This document shows, in pieces, positions 36,433 through 60,826 of a stretch of DNA of 64,000 nucleotides. Each line of letters starts with the position of its first letter. Position 1 is the stretch's first letter. The stretch comes from an uncultured Tateyamaria sp. (GTDB lineage Bacteria > Pseudomonadota > Alphaproteobacteria > Rhodobacterales > Rhodobacteraceae): positions 1,240,001 through 1,304,000 of the forward strand of contig NZ_CANMBJ010000002.1 of NCBI RefSeq assembly GCF_947496075.1, written 5' to 3'. A program made the position numbers and the translations under genes. Below the pieces are notes generated by a model. It was not told the DNA's origin. It made no database searches and worked only from the letters and a program-made list of their open reading frames with translations.

Positions 36433-37080
36433 ATGGAATTGTCAGTTCAATCACTTACAGACCTGGAGCTGTTTCCGTACTACGCGGACATTCCTCTGGA
36501 GGTGCCGCATTGCCTCACTGGTGGCGAGGCAGAATATGTACGTGGTACTGTAAACGGATTGGTCTATGAGGGCTTGAAGGTTTCGACCAGCATTTCATGC
36601 GGAGAGCTGCAAACAGGCGCCACCTACGTTGCTCTAGGGCGCGATGCGCGGGGCATGCAGGTACAGACACATTGGATGTATTGCACACAAACTGCGCCGA
36701 TCCCAACGCTTGCGATATCACATAATCACGGCACGCCTGGCGTGTTTGCCCCAGCACCCCATCTCGATCGATCCATGTTTGTAACGCTGGAGCCGCTTGG
36801 AGAAATAATAGGTGTGTCATCGTACCTGCCATCACACCTGGACGTATTCGAGTTCAAGCTAGGTACGTCGGGCGATTTGATCTCTACTGCTTTCGGCGCG
36901 CCCCATGTCATGGGCATTCGGATCAAAGACCCTTTTCTGCCACCACACTTCCTCACTGGGGCGCGCCGTTTGACGGTTACGGCCCGGTCAACGCGTACAG
37001 GCCAGTCCATCGGACTTCAGGATTTGATATGTGTACAGTCCGGTGATCCGGCCGTCTTTCTGCAAGAGAATTGCAAGTGA
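36433..37080 (+). CDS. Unknown 215-aa protein, first gene of GSY cluster
   Basis: I do not recognise this protein. It has no signal peptide and no membrane helix. Composition is mixed beta (VRGTVNGLVYEGLKVSTSIS, TLAISHNHGTPGVFAP, LTVTARSTRTG) with three His/Cys-containing loops (CTQTAPIPT, SHNHG, C-terminal CK). An SD-like GGGCAGGA is close to the ATG. It ends just before the winged-helix regulator frame and is on the same strand as regulator, PAP2-like enzyme and protease, so a shared transcript is likely. Coding status is supported by length, position and uninterrupted frame, not by homology. Confidence 0.6.
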   Translation: MELSVQSLTDLELFPYYADIPLEVPHCLTGGEAEYVRGTVNGLVYEGLKVSTSISCGELQTGATYVALGRDARGMQVQTHWMYCTQTAPIPTLAISHNHGTPGVFAPAPHLDRSMFVTLEPLGEIIGVSSYLPSHLDVFEFKLGTSGDLISTAFGAPHVMGIRIKDPFLPPHFLTGARRLTVTARSTRTGQSIGLQDLICVQSGDPAVFLQENCK

Positions 37081-37274
37081 TTGGCGCCGCGACAATAACG
37101 GTTCCGCATGAAAATGCGTGCAAGGAGCGGAAGCACGCGGCCGAACACCATATCCAGACCTCTGACAAATACGCGCATGGCGGGCAAAAAGTTCGCTTTT
37201 TTGTTGAAACCCCCGCCGCTTTGCGAAACCTTAACGGCGAACACAATGGCGCGGTCCGGGGGGAAGGAATCTGC

Positions 37275-39248
37275 GTGTCGGGGAAACTCAACACAGACAC
37301 ACTGGTTGTGTTGGGGGACGTCACTTACGATCCCAACCGTGATCAGCTACAGCGGGCCGACGGCACGCATGTTGTGCTTCGTGCGCAATCAGCAAGCGTA
37401 TTGCGGTGTCTGGCACAAAGCCCAGGCATACTGGTGCCGCGGGACACTCTGATCGAGACGGTGTGGGACGGGCTGTCTGTCACCGACGATAGTCTGACGC
37501 AGTGTATCGCAGATATACGCCGCGCAATCGGTGACACAGATCGCGCGATCTTAAAGACCGTCCCAAAACGCGGGTTTATTTTAAACGCCGTCTTGGAAAG
37601 CGTAGAACGACCCGGCCAGACAAGCATGCCAGCTGATCTGGGAACGATGGCAGAGTTAAGCTCAGGCCATGGGAACGTTGTCGTCTTAACAAAGCAAGCA
37701 TCTTTCGAGGCCGAAAAGACTGCACACACGACCCTAGACGCCTCCTCGGACGTAGAGAAACAAACCTTCACCAGCCTTACAGAAGCCGCCGCGACATGTT
37801 TAAGGCGGGCGCAAGGCAGCGGGGCGTCCAGTGCACTCGCCGCTGAATACGGCGATCCCGCACAACTCGCTGCACTGCTGGATGCCGCGCGGCCGGGAGA
37901 AGTGCTGAGCAGCCTCGATATTCGGGACATGGCCCACGCGTTCCCGCAACTTGTTTTTGAAGACCTCGGATACATCGACGATCAACAAAACACGCGCGCA
38001 TTTCGCCTGCTGTCGGAGGGACCAGGCGATACATTCGGGCAAGGTTTTGAAGATCAACCTCTCTTGCCAACCATTTCGGTGCTGCCTTTGCAGAACATGA
38101 GCCAAGATGGGCCGGACATTCTTGGCACTGTTTTTGCGGATCGGGTGACAGCGGTGTTAAGCGCATCGGAAGAGATCAACGTGACCTCACGCTTGTCCAC
38201 AGCGTCCTTTGTGCATGGTCCGGCCGATCTTCTTGAGGCCGGGCGGCTGCTGAACGCTGAATTTGTTCTTTCGGGCATGTACATCAAGCGCGGCGACAAG
38301 CTGCAGCTCAATCTAGAATTCACCGAAGTGGCCAGTCAGCATGTGCTATGGGCTCTCCGACTCGAAATGACTCAGGACGAGTTGCTTGGTGATTGTGAGC
38401 AGGCCTACGAGATTGTTGCAAAGGTGCGCCGCGCCGTTCTGATCAACGAAATTCGCCGGGCCAACACCAGACCTTTGGCAAGTTTGCAGAATTATTCGTT
38501 GATGTTCGCCGCCGTGGGGTTGATGCATCGGCTTTCACCCAAGGATTTCAAGAAGGCGCGTGATCTGATCGACGTATTGTCGGCACGCGTGCCAAATCAT
38601 CCCACACCTTTCGCCTGGCGCGCGCGATGGCATCTTCTCCGCGTGGTTCAAGGCTGGTCGCAGGACCCTGACAAGGATGCCCGGGCAGCGCTTGATTGCA
38701 CAGGCCGTGCACTGGATCTTGACCCGGAAAACGTACTGGCCCTTGCATGCGAGGGGCACGTTCTGACCAATCTGTTGCATCGGCTCGATGATGCAGAAGA
38801 ACGCTATGACATGGCACTGGACATCAACCCAAACGATGCCAATGCAAGATCGCTGAGAGGCATGCTTCTCGCATTCCAGGATCGCGGGGAGGATGGGGTG
38901 CGTGACACGGAGCGTGCACTTCATCTGGCACCGCTTGATCCGCATCGCTTTTTCTATCTCGTCATGGCGGCAGGCGCGTGGCTGACGCCAAACAACTTCG
39001 CTCGATCGGAAGAGTTGGCTTTGGCATCGTTGCGACTGAACAGAACTCACACATCCACTTTGCGCGTTTTGGCTGTGGCACAGCACAGTCAGGGAAAAAC
39101 GGCGGAAGCACGAGAAACCGTATCAAAGCTGTTGAAACTGCAACCCGATCTTCGAGTGAGCCGTTGGTTGAAGTCTTCTCCGAGCGCTGAATTCAATACT
39201 GGTAAGACATTTGCCAAAGCCCTGCGTGATGCAGGTGTTCCCGATTGA
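37275..39248 (+). CDS. CadC-like winged-helix regulator with TPR-like C-terminus
   Basis: A 657-aa protein from GTG 37275, which has a very strong GGGGGGAAGGA seven bases upstream; the frame is open to a TTG at 37071. Residues about 5-100 are an OmpR/PhoB-type DNA-binding domain (LGDVTYDPNRDQLQRADG, then LIETVWDGLSVTDDSLTQCIADIRRAIGD, KTVPKRGFIL). A central region (about 265-400; TISVLPLQNMSQDG then NAEFVLSGMYIKRGDKLQLN) resembles the FlgO/TolB-like module found in CadC-type and adenylate-cyclase-type proteins. The remainder is tandem TPR-like helices (ALDLDPENVLALACEGHVL, ALDINPNDANARSLRGMLL). No transmembrane helix is evident, so it is a soluble one-component regulator. It probably controls the cluster. 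Confidence 0.82.
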   Translation: MSGKLNTDTLVVLGDVTYDPNRDQLQRADGTHVVLRAQSASVLRCLAQSPGILVPRDTLIETVWDGLSVTDDSLTQCIADIRRAIGDTDRAILKTVPKRGFILNAVLESVERPGQTSMPADLGTMAELSSGHGNVVVLTKQASFEAEKTAHTTLDASSDVEKQTFTSLTEAAATCLRRAQGSGASSALAAEYGDPAQLAALLDAARPGEVLSSLDIRDMAHAFPQLVFEDLGYIDDQQNTRAFRLLSEGPGDTFGQGFEDQPLLPTISVLPLQNMSQDGPDILGTVFADRVTAVLSASEEINVTSRLSTASFVHGPADLLEAGRLLNAEFVLSGMYIKRGDKLQLNLEFTEVASQHVLWALRLEMTQDELLGDCEQAYEIVAKVRRAVLINEIRRANTRPLASLQNYSLMFAAVGLMHRLSPKDFKKARDLIDVLSARVPNHPTPFAWRARWHLLRVVQGWSQDPDKDARAALDCTGRALDLDPENVLALACEGHVLTNLLHRLDDAEERYDMALDINPNDANARSLRGMLLAFQDRGEDGVRDTERALHLAPLDPHRFFYLVMAAGAWLTPNNFARSEELALASLRLNRTHTSTLRVLAVAQHSQGKTAEARETVSKLLKLQPDLRVSRWLKSSPSAEFNTGKTFAKALRDAGVPD

Positions 39249-39281: not shown

Positions 39282-40475
39282 ATGACCGCAGAATTCTTTG
39301 GAAGCCCTCAGGGCTCGTACGGGTCCTATGGGTCGTATGGTTCTTACGGCTCGTATGGGTCCTACGGATCCTATGGTTCTTATGGCTCCTACGGGTCATA
39401 TGCGGCCTTCGGCCTCCCAGAAGGCCCTATTGCCGCAGAAGCATTTGTAACCACGCGCGACGGGATTGTTGGGGCTCCATTGGGTCCTATTCCTGGCACC
39501 CAACCGGGCGTGCCCAACGACGTGCAGAACCTGCAACGTCTTTCGCGCGAAGTGCGCGCCGCAATCTTTTCTTTCGCACTGGACACCCAGGTTGAGCTGA
39601 CTTTCGAACAAGGCCAAACGGCCAAGGCAACACTTTGGCGCAAAGAGGACGCGCACACGGGCAAGCCCGGGTGCAACTACAAGAAGCTCGCCAGAATCAA
39701 GGCGCCCAAGATGGAGGTCTTTGAAGAACAGATGGGCTTTCTGACGGGTTATGCGGACATTCGTCAGGATCGCGGTGCTGAGATTATCTCTCAGATTCCG
39801 GCACCTGTGCCGTTTTACCAAACTATTGGATTTATTGATCCGGCGCGCACACCGTATACGCTTGAATTGCTCGCCACCGGTCTTCGCTTCGCGAATTTCT
39901 GCGAACAGCAGTTCAAATACGTTCTTGCCGTCAAGCGACCGATTGAATTGTCGCCGCAAGTACAACCGATGATCGCCACACCAACCCATGGTTCGCTTCC
40001 CAGTGGGCACGCGACAGAAGCCTTTGTCATGGCTCGCTTGATTTGGAAGCTGATGCTGCATTCTGGAACACCACAATACGGGGCAGGGGGGCATTGGGGT
40101 GAAATGCTCATGCGGCTTGCGGCACGCATTGCGACTAACCGAACTGTGGCAGGTGTCCACTACCCTGTCGACAGCGCAACCGGAGCGATGCTCGGGCTGA
40201 CCCTCGCTGACTTTATCTATGATCTGAGCACAGGGAATGGCTGGACGACCGCCAAGTTCCACGGACATCACTACGCTGGAAGTAGCGATTTCGAGTGGCA
40301 CAAGCTCTACAAAGCGGATGACGACACCCAGAAAGACCAATCAACAGGACCGGACGGCGTTTGGGCTACCGCGACACAGCGCACATCCTGCAGCGCACCG
40401 GATCCAAGGCTCGCCTGGTTGTGGAACAAGGCACAAGCCGAATGGGTTGATTTCAACCCCAACCCAACGGTTTGA
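39282..40475 (+). CDS. PAP2/vanadium-haloperoxidase superfamily enzyme with N-terminal Gly-Ser-Tyr repeat
   Basis: A 397-aa protein with a strong GGAGGAAGG SD. Residues 11-40 are ten perfect GSY triplets, then a Pro/Gly linker. The catalytic domain has the complete three-part acid phosphatase/haloperoxidase signature: K212-x6-R219-P220, P-S241-G-H243 and N-R287-x5-H293-x3-D297 (the canonical Ser before the second Arg is Asn). His293 would form the phospho-enzyme or bind vanadate. No signal peptide and few hydrophobic helices, unlike membrane PAP2 lipid phosphatases, so it is a soluble form closer to haloperoxidase-like proteins. Whether it is a phosphatase or a haloperoxidase cannot be told from sequence. 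It is followed six bases later by an S8 protease gene. Confidence 0.82.
   Translation: MTAEFFGSPQGSYGSYGSYGSYGSYGSYGSYGSYGSYGSYAAFGLPEGPIAAEAFVTTRDGIVGAPLGPIPGTQPGVPNDVQNLQRLSREVRAAIFSFALDTQVELTFEQGQTAKATLWRKEDAHTGKPGCNYKKLARIKAPKMEVFEEQMGFLTGYADIRQDRGAEIISQIPAPVPFYQTIGFIDPARTPYTLELLATGLRFANFCEQQFKYVLAVKRPIELSPQVQPMIATPTHGSLPSGHATEAFVMARLIWKLMLHSGTPQYGAGGHWGEMLMRLAARIATNRTVAGVHYPVDSATGAMLGLTLADFIYDLSTGNGWTTAKFHGHHYAGSSDFEWHKLYKADDDTQKDQSTGPDGVWATATQRTSCSAPDPRLAWLWNKAQAEWVDFNPNPTV
39312..39401 (+). repeat. Ten tandem 9-bp units encoding (Gly-Ser-Tyr)x10
   Basis: Ten consecutive codon triplets all encode GSY, yet all ten 9-bp units differ in DNA sequence through synonymous changes (GGC/GGG/GGT/GGA, TCG/TCC/TCT/TCA, TAC/TAT). 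That pattern indicates selection for the amino-acid repeat rather than a recent slippage expansion. Confidence 0.95.
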
Positions 40476-40481
40476 GGGCAG

Positions 40482-42491
40482 ATGGCCATGGCCTATTCTT
40501 GGACATCGTCATCAAGGGACGAACAAGCACCCATCGATGCACTCACCTTTACCAGGCTGTCTAAGAGCCTGAATATACGGGACTCTGATTGGCTTTCAGC
40601 GATGGTAGAGCTTGAAAGCATCAGCCTCGCTGAACTCGAGGAGCGCTTGGCGGCTGACTATCCCAGCGATCTGCTTTTGCCGTCCGCGTATGACAAAGCT
40701 GATCGCAGCAGACGCCCTGAGCGGCAATTCGTGAGCCTTTTCGCGCGGCGAAACTTGATCGAAGCGCTGAACGACACCCAAAACGAATACAATGTTGTCA
40801 ATGTGCATTTGGGGCTGCTTACACCGGAGGAGTGGCTGTCATTTGAAGCAGATGCGCCAGATTTGTCTCCGATCGAAGTGCCCAAGGGCAGTGTTGTGAC
40901 GGCAATGATCGATGATGGAATTGGCATTGCGCACGAACTGTTTCGTGCTGAACCCGAAGAAACGCGTGTCGAATTTTGCACCGTTCTTCCTGCGCCGCCA
41001 AACCCTGATCGTGGTGACGCCTCGCAGGGCAGGGTGCTCGACGCCGATGAAATTGACAAGTATCTCCGTGAATTCACCCGGTCAGACCTCCTGGACGAAG
41101 ATCAGTTCTATAGCCACACGGCTCAAATTGACTACAGACAGGGCAAATTCTCACCCGTATCGCTGCGACGCTCACACGGCACGCATGTGATGGGCCTGTC
41201 GACTGGTTTCGCTCCCGAGCTGAATGACGGCACGCGCCCAATCATTTGCGCAGTACTGCCACCCCGCGTGGTCGAGGACACGTCAGGCATCAGTCTGTTG
41301 CCCGCACTTTGTCTGGCTCTCCATGTGCTGGGCAAGCAGGCCTCTCGCTTTAAATATGATGGTGAGCCCGTGCCGATGGTCACCAACTTTTCGTATGGCA
41401 ACTTCTCGGGTCCTCACGATGGGACCAGTGAGGTGTCTCGCCTGTTCGAGCAGTTTCTTTCGAGCGATCCTGAACAAACACGTTGGATGACACTGCCAGC
41501 GGGCAACGGCAATCTGGCACGCGCACACGCTGAGTTGCAATTTGACGGCAAGAATGCGGACGGGATCACACTTGATCTTCGAGTCTTGCCGGACGACCGG
41601 ACTGCAAGTCACGTTGAACTCTGGATGCCGTTTTCGGAATCTGATCCTCCCCCGGATTATGTCTCGGTCACTGTGACACCGCCTTTTGGTCCCGAAAGCC
41701 TGACGGTCAAAGCTCAGCCAGGACAGCACCAAACACTTCTTGACGAGCTGGGTCGGGTGGTGGCGACGCTTCTCTACACTTTTGAGCCGGCGCCAACGGC
41801 GCGGGGGCTCATCACCTTGGCTATTGAGCCGACCGCCAGTCTTGATCCGGGCCGTGCATTGGCACCATCAGGACGATGGAATATCTGTGCCAAACCTAAA
41901 GATATCGCGCCGGATCAAATAGTGCAGGTCTGGGTCAGACGCGATGAAACACTTCCTGGATACCGCCCCGGCGGTCGACAGTCCTATTTTGACAATGGCG
42001 ACTATGTGCGCTTTGGCCCATTTGGCGCTCCTTTGCCCGTTGATCCTCCGGACACGCCAAGCCCGATCAGGCGTGCAGGAACGCTCAGTGGGTTTGCCTG
42101 TGGGCCTTCTCCGATCGTGGTTGCCGCCTATACAAAGCGAAACGAGATTATCTCATACTACTCTGCAGCGGGGCCACTAACCCATACGCCAATGACACCC
42201 GAACCTTCGCGAAATGGACCTGATGTCGCTGCGGAAGGTGATGAATCCCTGGTGCTGTGGGGTGTGGTTTCAGCGGGATCGCGCAGCGGATCTTATGTGC
42301 GCCTCAATGGTACCAGCGTATCGGCACCAAGGGTTGCGCGCAAAGCGTCGGACGCGATCACTGATTGGAACGGAACTGCACGTGAGTGGGTCGCACTTGC
42401 AGCCAAGGAAGATCCTTTCGATCTGCCTCCGGGCACAGAACCGGAAAGAATGGGCCACGGCGGCATCACTATCCCAATCGAATGGTCTTGA
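40482..42491 (+). CDS. S8 (subtilisin-like) serine peptidase without signal peptide
   Basis: A 669-aa protein with a full catalytic set: Asp144 in VTAMIDDGIGIAHELF, His232 in RRSHGTHVMGLSTG, oxyanion Asn in LPAGNGNLARAH and Ser612 in LNGTSVSAPRVARKAS. The first 130 residues form a non-catalytic, Leu/Glu-rich N-terminal region without secretion signal. A large beta-rich insertion (about 355-555) separates the Asn motif from the Ser motif. ATG 40482 or 40488 may be used (GAGGG upstream). An intracellular S8 protease directly after the GSY-repeat protein suggests it processes or degrades a cluster product. A perfect hairpin terminator follows. Confidence 0.88.
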   Translation: MAMAYSWTSSSRDEQAPIDALTFTRLSKSLNIRDSDWLSAMVELESISLAELEERLAADYPSDLLLPSAYDKADRSRRPERQFVSLFARRNLIEALNDTQNEYNVVNVHLGLLTPEEWLSFEADAPDLSPIEVPKGSVVTAMIDDGIGIAHELFRAEPEETRVEFCTVLPAPPNPDRGDASQGRVLDADEIDKYLREFTRSDLLDEDQFYSHTAQIDYRQGKFSPVSLRRSHGTHVMGLSTGFAPELNDGTRPIICAVLPPRVVEDTSGISLLPALCLALHVLGKQASRFKYDGEPVPMVTNFSYGNFSGPHDGTSEVSRLFEQFLSSDPEQTRWMTLPAGNGNLARAHAELQFDGKNADGITLDLRVLPDDRTASHVELWMPFSESDPPPDYVSVTVTPPFGPESLTVKAQPGQHQTLLDELGRVVATLLYTFEPAPTARGLITLAIEPTASLDPGRALAPSGRWNICAKPKDIAPDQIVQVWVRRDETLPGYRPGGRQSYFDNGDYVRFGPFGAPLPVDPPDTPSPIRRAGTLSGFACGPSPIVVAAYTKRNEIISYYSAAGPLTHTPMTPEPSRNGPDVAAEGDESLVLWGVVSAGSRSGSYVRLNGTSVSAPRVARKASDAITDWNGTAREWVALAAKEDPFDLPPGTEPERMGHGGITIPIEWS

Positions 42492-59175: not shown

Positions 59176-59608
59176 GTTCTTTTACTGCTCACAGTGTTCC
59201 CAGATCCAACACAGAAGTGCGTGATTCACTATTGAACCGCAGTAGTTGAACCTGATCAATCGGCTGAAGACTTCAAGCATGTCAGCAGAATAAACCCTCA
59301 CGGCGCATCAGATATCCGGTGAATGGCCGGTCCATCCGACCCTTTTGTGTGACGCTGTCACCGTTTCCTGACTGCCACGCCATCCATTACGCCTTCGGCA
59401 GTATTGGCTTCATCTGGCTCAAGAAAAGGAAAATCAGTTACTTTGTCTTTTGAATTTCCAAGACTCCCGATTCTGGTATTTTTGGTAGCGTCGATCCTAA
59501 AGCCTAAGAGCATCTGCATCCGATTTCTTTGCGGTGAAATGAATAAGTGCGCCTGCGCCCGTGTTGTCAGGACGGAACGCGCAATTTCAATGGCAAAGGA
59601 TAGGATCG
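59176..59608. other. Intergenic region (433 bp), nothing recognisable
   Basis: No coding frame with family resemblance, no hairpin with a T-tract and no repeat were seen. The last 15 bases hold AAAGGATAGGA, the SD of the next gene. The T-rich segment 59440-59490 is the only candidate promoter area. Confidence 0.4.
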
Positions 59609-60826
59609 ATGGCAACTTGGAGCATCATTAGTCACCCCGACATTTGGAAGGTCATTCAAAAGCACAAAAAAACGCAACTGCTGAATGCGCCGAAAATCTC
59701 TTTTGACTATACGGCGACGTTTCCCGACAAGGTCTTCAAAGAGATTAAGGCTGACCCGCTTTTGATTGAAAAGATACGAAATCCTTGTGAGCTCTTGTTC
59801 AACAAGATGATTGCTGAGATGTCGAAGATCACTCAGGAATACGACAAGGTTGTCGCGGCAAAGCGCCAGGCCATCACGGATAGAGGTGACATTCTGGCCG
59901 TCAAAACTCTGAAGGCTCTTCCTGCCGCTCTGGAAAAGCAGCTGAACACAGTGTCGAATACTTATGTATCCAAGATGGATGCGGCCTCAAAAAAGGGTTG
60001 GGACGATTACGTCAAGTTAAAGACCGCTTACAAGAAGTTCAGGATAAAGGTCAGGGTCGACTTCGCCCTGCGTGGTGTAGGCGTTGCCATCAATGCGATC
60101 AAAGTCGTCACAGCGGGGCCGGTTGGAATCGTCTTTGCTGTACAGGGTACGCTCAAGGATGCGGTCTCAACGGCCAATGAACTGTATCTCATCTTCCGAA
60201 AGCTGGAAAAGGTACAGGAGCGGATCGAAACCGGCGTGAACGCACTGTCAGACAAGATGGCGGGCGGCAAGGGCAAGAAGGCAGATGTGCTGAAGTCATT
60301 CGCCGCGAGCATCACGGGCTATTGCGGCAAAACGGGCAAGCAAATGCAGAAAGAGCTTAGGTTCTACGAGGGCCGGATGGTCGAATATGAGCAGAAGGCG
60401 CACACGCTGAGCAAACGTTTGAACAAGCTGCTGGAGAAGGCGGAGTCGCTTGCAAAGAAGCTGCCGAAAGAGGTGGCCCAAGATGTGAGCAAGATCGAGA
60501 CTGAGGTCGGCACGCTGATCACGATGGTCAAGGATCGTGTCACAAAACTACCCAACTACAAGACATTTCACAAAGATACGAAAAAGACACTCGACGACTT
60601 GATGAATGACAAAGGCCTGAAGAATCTGGATAAATGGATCAACGCCTTCGAAACGGCTGTGGATGCGGCCAAGATCGCGACAGGGGCGGCGAGCACCGAT
60701 GCCTCAGGCTGGAAGAATATCGACAAGACGCTCGTGACGACTAACGGCTACCTTGTCTCGCTTGGTAAGGCTGTAGAGCGCCACTACAAAGGCGTGTCAA
60801 AAACGGTGGCGAATGCCGTCGCTTGA
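59609..60826 (+). CDS. Unknown 405-aa strongly helical protein with one central hydrophobic segment
   Basis: I do not recognise this protein. The start ATG 59609 has a good GGATAGGA upstream. It is Lys-rich and almost entirely helix-forming, with coiled-coil-like stretches (residues about 60-150 and 190-345, for example LSKRLNKLLEKAESLAKKL). A single hydrophobic block lies at about 152-179 (FALRGVGVAINAIKVV then AGPVGIVFAVQG), with no signal peptide. Long helices around a central hydrophobic hairpin resemble alpha-pore-forming toxins of the ClyA/HBL shape, but there is no direct motif match. It is flanked by an unremarkable gap and a dead transposase fragment. Fewer alanines and more lysines than neighbouring proteins hint at horizontal origin. 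Confidence 0.65.
   Translation: MATWSIISHPDIWKVIQKHKKTQLLNAPKISFDYTATFPDKVFKEIKADPLLIEKIRNPCELLFNKMIAEMSKITQEYDKVVAAKRQAITDRGDILAVKTLKALPAALEKQLNTVSNTYVSKMDAASKKGWDDYVKLKTAYKKFRIKVRVDFALRGVGVAINAIKVVTAGPVGIVFAVQGTLKDAVSTANELYLIFRKLEKVQERIETGVNALSDKMAGGKGKKADVLKSFAASITGYCGKTGKQMQKELRFYEGRMVEYEQKAHTLSKRLNKLLEKAESLAKKLPKEVAQDVSKIETEVGTLITMVKDRVTKLPNYKTFHKDTKKTLDDLMNDKGLKNLDKWINAFETAVDAAKIATGAASTDASGWKNIDKTLVTTNGYLVSLGKAVERHYKGVSKTVANAVA

What the first reader, a model, noticed from the sequence alone, without database searches (positions are those of the whole stretch)
39312..39401. Ten perfect Gly-Ser-Tyr repeats with ten different DNA units
The N-terminus of a PAP2/haloperoxidase-fold enzyme is (GSY)x10. 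All ten 9-bp units differ at synonymous sites, which argues for long-term selection on the peptide, not replication slippage. [G/S]Y[G/S] repeats are the sticker motif of FUS-type low-complexity domains that phase-separate. A bacterial enzyme with such a tail next to an intracellular protease is unusual to me.
Basis: partly seen in the sequence, partly recalled or inferred. Interest (0 to 1): 0.75.

Follow-up and report, generated by a model that had tools for sequence, protein, structure and literature searches.

The report
Bacterial enzyme family with drifting repeat tags
A family of bacterial enzymes, found next to a regulator and a protease, carries at its front end a short peptide repeated exactly many times; the peptide differs from one family member to the next, but the copies within one protein stay identical while their DNA spelling is kept unlike, which points to an unknown function that needs exact repetition.

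Summary
(GSY)x10 at 39312-39401 is real: the N-terminus of a 397-aa PAP2 hydrolase (39282-40475). It belongs to a family-wide phenomenon. Of 142 homologous loci fetched with flanks, 141 carry a homogeneous array (123 of period 3) and the last a split (MA)n. The unit differs widely: GAY, SAY, NAL, TGW, GNQ, HAG, GGV, DAR, SK; 80 in all. On a tree the unit changes at least 86 times, the period 6 times; close different-unit pairs mostly differ by one residue, changed in all copies. Inside arrays pN is 0.006 while synonymous sites are saturated, and neighbouring copies avoid the same codon (0.267 against 0.368, z -10.4): natural codon scrambling. The gene sits in a conserved module with a TPR regulator (141/142) and a protease (142/142, 16 by weaker evidence). 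Tyr is not conserved, so the FUS-type idea fails as stated. Best reading: an identity array recognised as a lattice, by a partner (TPR is my candidate) or by itself. No reader was identified; covariation tests are inconclusive. I found no description in the open-access library searched.

The parts
39312..39401 (+). Array: ten perfect Gly-Ser-Tyr units, ten different 9-bp spellings
   Evidence: AlphaFold pLDDT <50 over residues 1-46
39282..40475 (+). Array-bearing PAP2 hydrolase, 397 aa, starts 33 bp after the stop of the regulator ORF; K212, R219-P220, P240-S-G-H243, R287, H293, D297 invariant or at least 90% conserved in 32 aligned sequences; no signal peptide or TM helix evident in a crude hydropathy scan
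37071..39248 (+). ORF of the module regulator: winged helix (Trans_reg_C), FlgO-like region, C-terminal TPR superhelix; start codon uncertain (match to the family profile begins near 37260)
40482..42491 (+). S8 subtilase, 669 aa, Asp/His/Asn/Ser motifs present; starts 6 bp after the PAP2 stop
36433..37080 (+). 215-aa protein of unknown family (c4), optional upstream member of the module (18 of 142 loci)

Best explanation
Shown by sequence statistics: the GSY array belongs to a conserved three-gene module of a TPR regulator, an array-bearing PAP2 hydrolase and a protease. Each array is kept exactly periodic and internally identical. The identity of the unit is nearly free; it drifts mostly one residue at a time and the copies follow. 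The DNA spelling of neighbouring copies is kept unlike. Inferred: the array is a multi-copy identity tag that must be read as a periodic lattice, by a partner with matching repeats or by other copies of itself. The protease would cut or shave the exposed array. The module would thus couple array integrity or occupancy to PAP2 activity and to transcription or cyclic-nucleotide output. Codon scrambling would protect the needed repeat number from one-unit slippage.
For: Array in 141 of 142 loci, the other has split (MA)n; 137 have at least 4 perfect copies. pS 1.03, pN 0.0064 between adjacent units; 13 of 1310 units deviate. Codon identity of adjacent units 0.267 vs 0.368 permuted, z -10.4, one array per unit, 76 arrays; 117 arrays below and 16 above own expectation of 137; control, same amino acid three codons apart in module genes outside the arrays, 0.405 vs 0.396; holds for 2-, 4- and 6-fold codons (z -6.5, -6.9, -4.7). 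At least 86 unit changes, 6 period changes over 140 tips; 16 of 19 closest disjoint different-unit pairs differ by one residue, 8.7% of random distinct pairs do. In-place switch: L061 (SGY)9 vs L063 (SGF)11, core 91% identical, the first six Ser codons share their AGY/TCN pattern, yet every Tyr is Phe. Detached copies follow the unit (ATENSQ/ATENHQ; 19 of 122 vs 5.5 shuffled). Regulator in 141/142 and a protease in 142/142 loci. Regulator model: long TPR superhelix, first PDB matches consensus TPR and OGT.
Against: No reader was identified. The excess divergence of the TPR C-terminal region in different-unit pairs (t 3.9; t 2.25 and 2.08 in the two orientation classes) was not significant in a stratified permutation (p 0.106), and 13 regions were tested. 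By eye, TPR repeats of one regulator do not look alike, as a strict one-repeat-one-unit code would suggest. Arrays of period 2, 4 and 5 (17 of 141) do not fit a 9 A lattice. Own-unit tripeptides are not enriched in the regulator (31 vs 33.2). In L061/L063 the TPR body is nearly identical although the unit switched; five of the few differences sit in the last 30 or so residues. The array count is helped by the way arrays were found (by periodicity), so the 13 deviants of 1310 are a lower bound.
Confidence: 0.35

Rival explanations
1. Homotypic assembly: arrays of identical units pack with each other (PGII/PPII bundles or cross-beta) and so cluster the PAP2 enzyme. Lock and key are the same sequence, so the unit can drift without a second gene following; mixed arrays pack badly, so homogeneity is kept. 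The protease disassembles the clusters.
For: No partner region covaries robustly with the unit; each of 80 units has G/A/S/N/T and at most one of V, I, L, M, F, W, Y; of the 15 genomes with two or more fetched loci, 14 have paralogs with different units; the array is predicted unstructured in the monomer.
Against: Units as unlike as SK, NR, DAR, QG, GGV and TGW sharing one packing mode is hard to picture; one genome (G014) has two paralogs with the same unit up to rotation; no assembly was tested.
Confidence: 0.3
2. Protease fuse or peptide-signal precursor: the adjacent protease cuts the array into many copies of one short peptide, which is the product that is sensed (by the TPR regulator) or whose loss switches PAP2.
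For: A protease in 142 of 142 loci, replaced by a non-homologous A4 peptidase in two; TPR regulator in 141 of 142; own-unit tripeptides slightly more frequent in the S8 partner (69 vs 53.7, sd 8.4); multi-copy identical units recall pheromone precursors (recalled).
Against: No signal peptide or TM helix evident on the array protein or the S8 proteins in a crude scan; by eye the S8 motif blocks do not follow the unit (nearly the same for SGY and SGF); one faulty copy in ten should be nearly neutral, yet pN is 0.006.
Confidence: 0.18
3. Neutral low-complexity linker kept homogeneous by slippage and gene conversion.
For: Whole-unit copy-number changes between close strains; in one genus a trough of DNA identity over the PAP2 gene suggests allele exchange.
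Against: Conversion or slippage would homogenise synonymous sites as well; they are saturated and anti-correlated between neighbours. A neutral linker at saturated synonymous sites would have lost its periodicity.
Confidence: 0.03
4. Slippery degron or anti-degradation tag (as low-complexity stretches do for AAA+ proteases; recalled), where only simplicity matters.
For: Composition nearly free; located upstream of the folded core in the model and in the homologues read.
Against: Simplicity alone does not demand exact order and register; departures from the unit are rare (13 of 1310, a lower bound).
Confidence: 0.07

Closest known systems
PAP2 superfamily, class A acid phosphatases and vanadium haloperoxidases (PF01569)
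   Same: Fold and catalytic K..RP / PSGH / R..H..D residues (motif names recalled)
   Different: About 400 aa, N-terminal array, extra beta region and C-terminal part; fixed TPR-regulator and protease neighbours
CadC/SARP-type winged-helix TPR regulators
   Same: Winged helix plus FlgO-like plus TPR (CadC among the PDB matches; SARP likeness recalled)
   Different: Genetically tied to array-PAP2 and a protease; the winged helix can be replaced by a nucleotide cyclase
Designed repeat proteins that bind tripeptide-repeat peptides (PMC10115654; passages seen)
   Same: A superhelical repeat protein and a perfect tripeptide-repeat ligand occur together
   Different: That system is human-made; here binding is only a hypothesis
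RRNPP TPR regulators with peptide pheromones (recalled; listing only)
   Same: TPR regulator, protease and short peptide units that vary between lineages
   Different: No secretion signal seen, carrier is an enzyme, different DNA-binding domain; no sensing shown
FUS-type [G/S]Y[G/S] low-complexity domains (recalled)
   Same: GSY composition of this one array
   Different: 107 of 141 family arrays lack aromatics, and exact order is conserved, not composition

Membership tests
PAP2 superfamily | PF01569 above its curated cutoff and the catalytic motif residues | tested here: met
   43.1 bits vs cutoff 27.2; catalytic residues invariant or at least 90% conserved; fold matches acid phosphatases
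Vanadium haloperoxidase | Vanadate-dependent halide oxidation | not testable with these tools
   Sequence only; closest by profile and fold are acid phosphatases, bromoperoxidases weaker
FUS-type condensate domain | Conserved aromatic sticker residues | tested here: not met
   34 of 141 arrays have any aromatic, 20 have Tyr
FUS-type condensate domain | Self-association or phase separation | not testable with these tools
   Needs an experiment
Slippage-driven minisatellite in a coding region | Near-identical DNA copies of variable number | tested here: not met
   Synonymous sites saturated, adjacent copies less alike than chance; copy number does vary
RRNPP peptide-TPR signalling | TPR regulator beside a peptide precursor gene | tested here: inconclusive
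   TPR regulator near the gene in 141 of 142 loci; precursor role of the array not shown
RRNPP peptide-TPR signalling | Secreted precursor | tested here: inconclusive
   Hydropathy scan only, no signal-peptide predictor: 11 of 142 have a strongly hydrophobic 19-residue window, three of these are the array itself
His-Xaa-Ser repeat peptides (HxsA4) | NCBIfam NF038313 above cutoff | tested here: not met
   34.3 bits vs cutoff 55, matching the array only (residues 10-40)
Known anti-phage defence systems | PADLOC model match | tested here: not met
   0 families at E <= 0.01 for three of four proteins; S8 only a weak IetS match, 16 bits, E 7e-4
S8 subtilase | PF00082 and catalytic triad | tested here: met
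   40 bits vs cutoff 21.8; D, H, N, S motif blocks present

The most novel reading that the evidence does not exclude
A natural lattice-matching recognition system: a TPR superhelix (or the array itself) reads a perfect tripeptide array one unit per step, and this lets bacteria hold a short peptide identity tag that mutates in lockstep across ten or so copies, giving each module its own private code, with codons scrambled to keep the repeat number.
Probability: 0.3. Interest if true: 0.95.

Novelty: categorically new. Interest (0 to 1): 0.86.

Why it matters
The parts are known kinds of protein, but I know of no system in which the period of a coding repeat is conserved while its sequence drifts in lockstep, at saturated synonymous sites, with avoidance of equal neighbouring codons. 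It is a natural experiment of about 80 units on what exact repetition is good for, and natural codon scrambling could serve as a marker for functional peptide repeats elsewhere. It makes a direct test possible: does a regulator, or the array itself, discriminate one unit from another by a single residue? Designed proteins that bind tripeptide repeats exist (PMC10115654, passages); a natural counterpart would be new to me.

Tried and rejected
Condensate/FUS reading: rejected as stated. Recent slippage as the whole explanation: rejected. A 36-bp higher-order repeat in the window: within chance. All-ten-units-differ as evidence by itself: within chance; over all arrays 32 of 137 have all units distinct, 38.5 expected.

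TPR covariation: looked good in a regression over 13 regions (there four of five S8 regions had t between -1.9 and -2.4), weaker when split by regulator orientation, not significant in a stratified permutation (TPR-C p 0.106; S8 D-H p 0.008 and insert p 0.033, both negative). I treat it as inconclusive. A first version (TPR-C p 0.005, S8 N-term p 0.001) was confounded by unequal divergence (0.307 vs 0.196). S8 motif blocks against unit: no tracking by eye. Own-unit tripeptides inside partners: regulator 31 vs 33.2, S8 69 vs 53.7 (sd 8.4), PAP2 after the array 85 vs 37.3 (sd 6.8; part of this is detached array copies). Cassette exchange: one genus shows an identity trough over PAP2 and the 3' end of the regulator; L061/L063 does not.

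Per amino acid the neighbour-codon avoidance is negative for all 11 tested but weak alone for T (z -2.1), Y (-1.8), F (-1.1) and L (-0.8). Outside arrays, directly neighbouring equal amino acids also avoid the same codon slightly (0.383 vs 0.397, z -3.4).

Viral spread: 15 pattern matches, none a relative. Literature: none of the rows listed described this module or such arrays (5 of 5 papers listed; 51: 12 of 84; 52: 0; 82: 0; 94: 2 of 2; 95: 4 of 5); I saw titles and abstract starts only. Searches were for comparison systems.

Limits: the 142 loci are those I fetched with flanks from the match lists, not all matches; two of them (L074, L182) have only about three copies. In one search, of 151 distinct hits 141 had an array score of 8 or more (one, L115, is a GGNWF repeat of fewer than four copies), three had short or split arrays (L046, L182, L199) and seven (L109-L114, L116; frames of 248-337 aa) had none and were not counted as family. 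The up/down labels are unreliable because stop-to-stop frames were used, so I cite only presence and strand; some regulator hits are partial (L188, L219). The protease count of 142 rests on 126 profile hits plus 16 others: 14 assigned by BLAST cluster (L193, L196, L220 confirmed as S8 by Pfam) and L221, L222 as A4 by Pfam. Pairs are disjoint but not all phylogenetically independent. Genomes with several copies: only 15 with two or more fetched loci were compared; others were not fetched. The units AAF (three copies, then two more after a spacer), GGY and NGY come from seven further loci, all with arrays, not in the statistics.

Full report
The observation. The ORF at 39282-40475 (+) encodes 397 aa beginning MTAEFFGSPQ-(GSY)x10-AAFGLP, with the array exactly at 39312-39401. 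The ten 9-bp units are all different. It is a PAP2 protein (PF01569, E 4e-11); its AlphaFold model (mean pLDDT 84) is least confident over residues 1-46, the array included, and its first PDB matches are acid phosphatases. The gene starts 33 bp after the stop of an ORF with a winged helix and TPRs (37071-39248) and ends 6 bp before an S8 subtilase (40482-42491). In this window alone the claim of selection is weak: with the same codons dealt at random, all ten units differ in 30% of draws.

The family. Searching relatives (27 of 101 genomes at E 1e-10; 29 of 398 of the phylum: 151 of 390 of the order at E 1e-15) and a public genome collection (six loci 69-72% identical) showed that homologues carry an N-terminal array of a short peptide, but a different one. 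In 142 loci fetched with flanks, 141 have a homogeneous array (123 of period 3, 9 of 2, 6 of 4, 2 of 5, 1 of 6) and the last, L199, has (MA)n in clumps; 137 have at least four perfect copies. Counting three units found later, 80 units occur, among them GSY, GAY, SSY, SAY, NAY, NAL, DAL, SGY, SGF, STF, GGF, NSF, TGW, GNA, TAM, NSQ, NHQ, GNQ, GWE, GYD, HAG, GGV, TGV, QHG, PQG, GKM, DAR, SR, SK and NNS. Each contains at least one of G, A, S, N, T; none has more than one of V, I, L, M, F, W, Y, or any Cys; 11 of 80 contain Tyr. More distant short phosphatases (seven of 151 hits) lack arrays.

Selection on exact repetition. Between adjacent units, synonymous sites are saturated (pS 1.03) while pN is 0.0064, and 13 of 1310 units deviate from their array; since arrays were found by their periodicity this is a lower bound. 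Adjacent units share the same codon less often than codon permutation predicts: 0.267 against 0.368 with one array per unit (76 arrays, z -10.4), while lags 2 to 5 are slightly above expectation and lag 6 is at it. Of 137 arrays 117 lie below and 16 above their own expectation. The effect holds for 2-fold, 4-fold and 6-fold codons and has the same sign for all 11 amino acids tested, though it is weak alone for T, Y, F and L. The control, same amino acids three codons apart in the regulator, S8 and PAP2 core, shows 0.405 against 0.396; for directly neighbouring codons there is a slight avoidance, 0.383 against 0.397. This is natural codon scrambling. It can be selection against one-unit slippage, or survival of arrays that cannot slip; both need a reason to keep the array exact.

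How units change. On a FastTree core tree of 140 sequences the unit changes at least 86 times (127 for shuffled labels), the period 6 times. The 19 closest disjoint different-unit pairs (patristic distance below 1.0, equal period) differ by one residue in 16 cases; 8.7% of random distinct three-residue units do. In L061 and L063 (PAP2 core 91% identical) one has (SGY)9 and the other (SGF)11: the AGY/TCN pattern of the first six Ser codons is shared, yet all Tyr are Phe. Copies separated from the array follow it, as in ATENSQ and ATENHQ. In seven Phaeobacter plasmid records of three species the unit stays NSF and the copy number varies from 5 to 7.

The module. Around the 142 genes at least part of a homologue of the TPR regulator is found in 141; the exception, L086, is a 9-kb contig cut off inside the S8 gene, the side on which related loci (L184, L185, L200) have the regulator. 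An S8 protease is found by profile in 126. The 16 others have a more divergent S8 (14, by cluster; three confirmed by Pfam) or, in L221 and L222, an unrelated A4 peptidase. The regulator is on the same strand as PAP2 in 82 and opposite in 59 loci, the profile-detected S8 in 100 and 26, so the association is not just one inherited operon layout. The regulator's N-terminal output varies: of 76 scanned, Trans_reg_C is detected in 20 and a nucleotide cyclase in 5, the rest having no detected output domain; the commonest TPR models match 40-42 of 76. Roseibium (L252) has a cyclase-TPR version. The regulator model (mean pLDDT 90) ends in a long TPR superhelix whose first PDB matches are consensus TPR and O-GlcNAc transferase (loose superpositions, rmsd about 13 A), with CadC also listed. 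No signal peptide is evident in the array protein or the S8 proteins in a crude hydropathy scan; the regulator was not scanned for TM helices. The seven Phaeobacter records name the three only as winged helix, phosphatase PAP2 family and S8 family proteins. In 43 loci no other sense ORF carries five or more perfect copies (the other hits there are antisense shadows).

What reads it. I looked for a partner that changes with the unit. A regression over 13 protein regions singled out the C-terminal TPR part (t 3.9), the two orientation classes agreed weakly, but a stratified permutation gave p 0.106, so this is inconclusive. In L061/L063 the TPR body hardly differs and five differences sit in the last 30 or so residues of the regulator. 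S8 motif blocks do not follow the unit by eye. Two recognition models remain about equal: a partner with matching repeats (TPR; the tripeptide rise is close to the rise per TPR, from recall, and designed proteins do this, PMC10115654, passages read), or homotypic packing of arrays. Of the 15 genomes with two or more fetched loci, paralogs have different units in 14; G014 has two with the same unit up to rotation. A neutral linker or a merely simple sequence does not explain exact order at saturated synonymous sites.

Novelty. None of the rows listed in text searches of the open-access library (titles and abstract starts seen) was an account of this module or of such arrays; most subscription papers are not held there. 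I rate the array phenomenon categorically new, its individual proteins as members of known families, and its function as open.

Noticed in passing
window 36433-37080: 215-aa protein without Pfam, NCBIfam or PADLOC match, sometimes the first gene of the module (18 of 142 loci).
   Followed up: partly
L221 3002-4075 and L222 4759-5850: The module protease is an A4 family peptidase in place of S8; no signal peptide seen by eye.
   Followed up: partly
L252 2550-4331: In Roseibium aggregatum the module regulator has an adenylate/guanylate cyclase domain in place of the winged helix.
   Followed up: partly
L251 3001-5309: In Parasedimentitalea marina pW43B the module looks broken: PAP2 match in two pieces and short hypothetical proteins, array (NSF)x7 still intact.
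   Followed up: no
window 59561-60826: 421-aa protein, Lys/Glu-rich by eye, with only sub-threshold Pfam matches (ATG17_like, DUF6468).
   Followed up: no
G000:C6:376074-377144 (L045/L080): Second copy of the module in the same genome, with a (HAG)x17 array.
   Followed up: partly
L276: (GGY)x11 array whose Tyr codons alternate TAC/TAT without exception.
   Followed up: no
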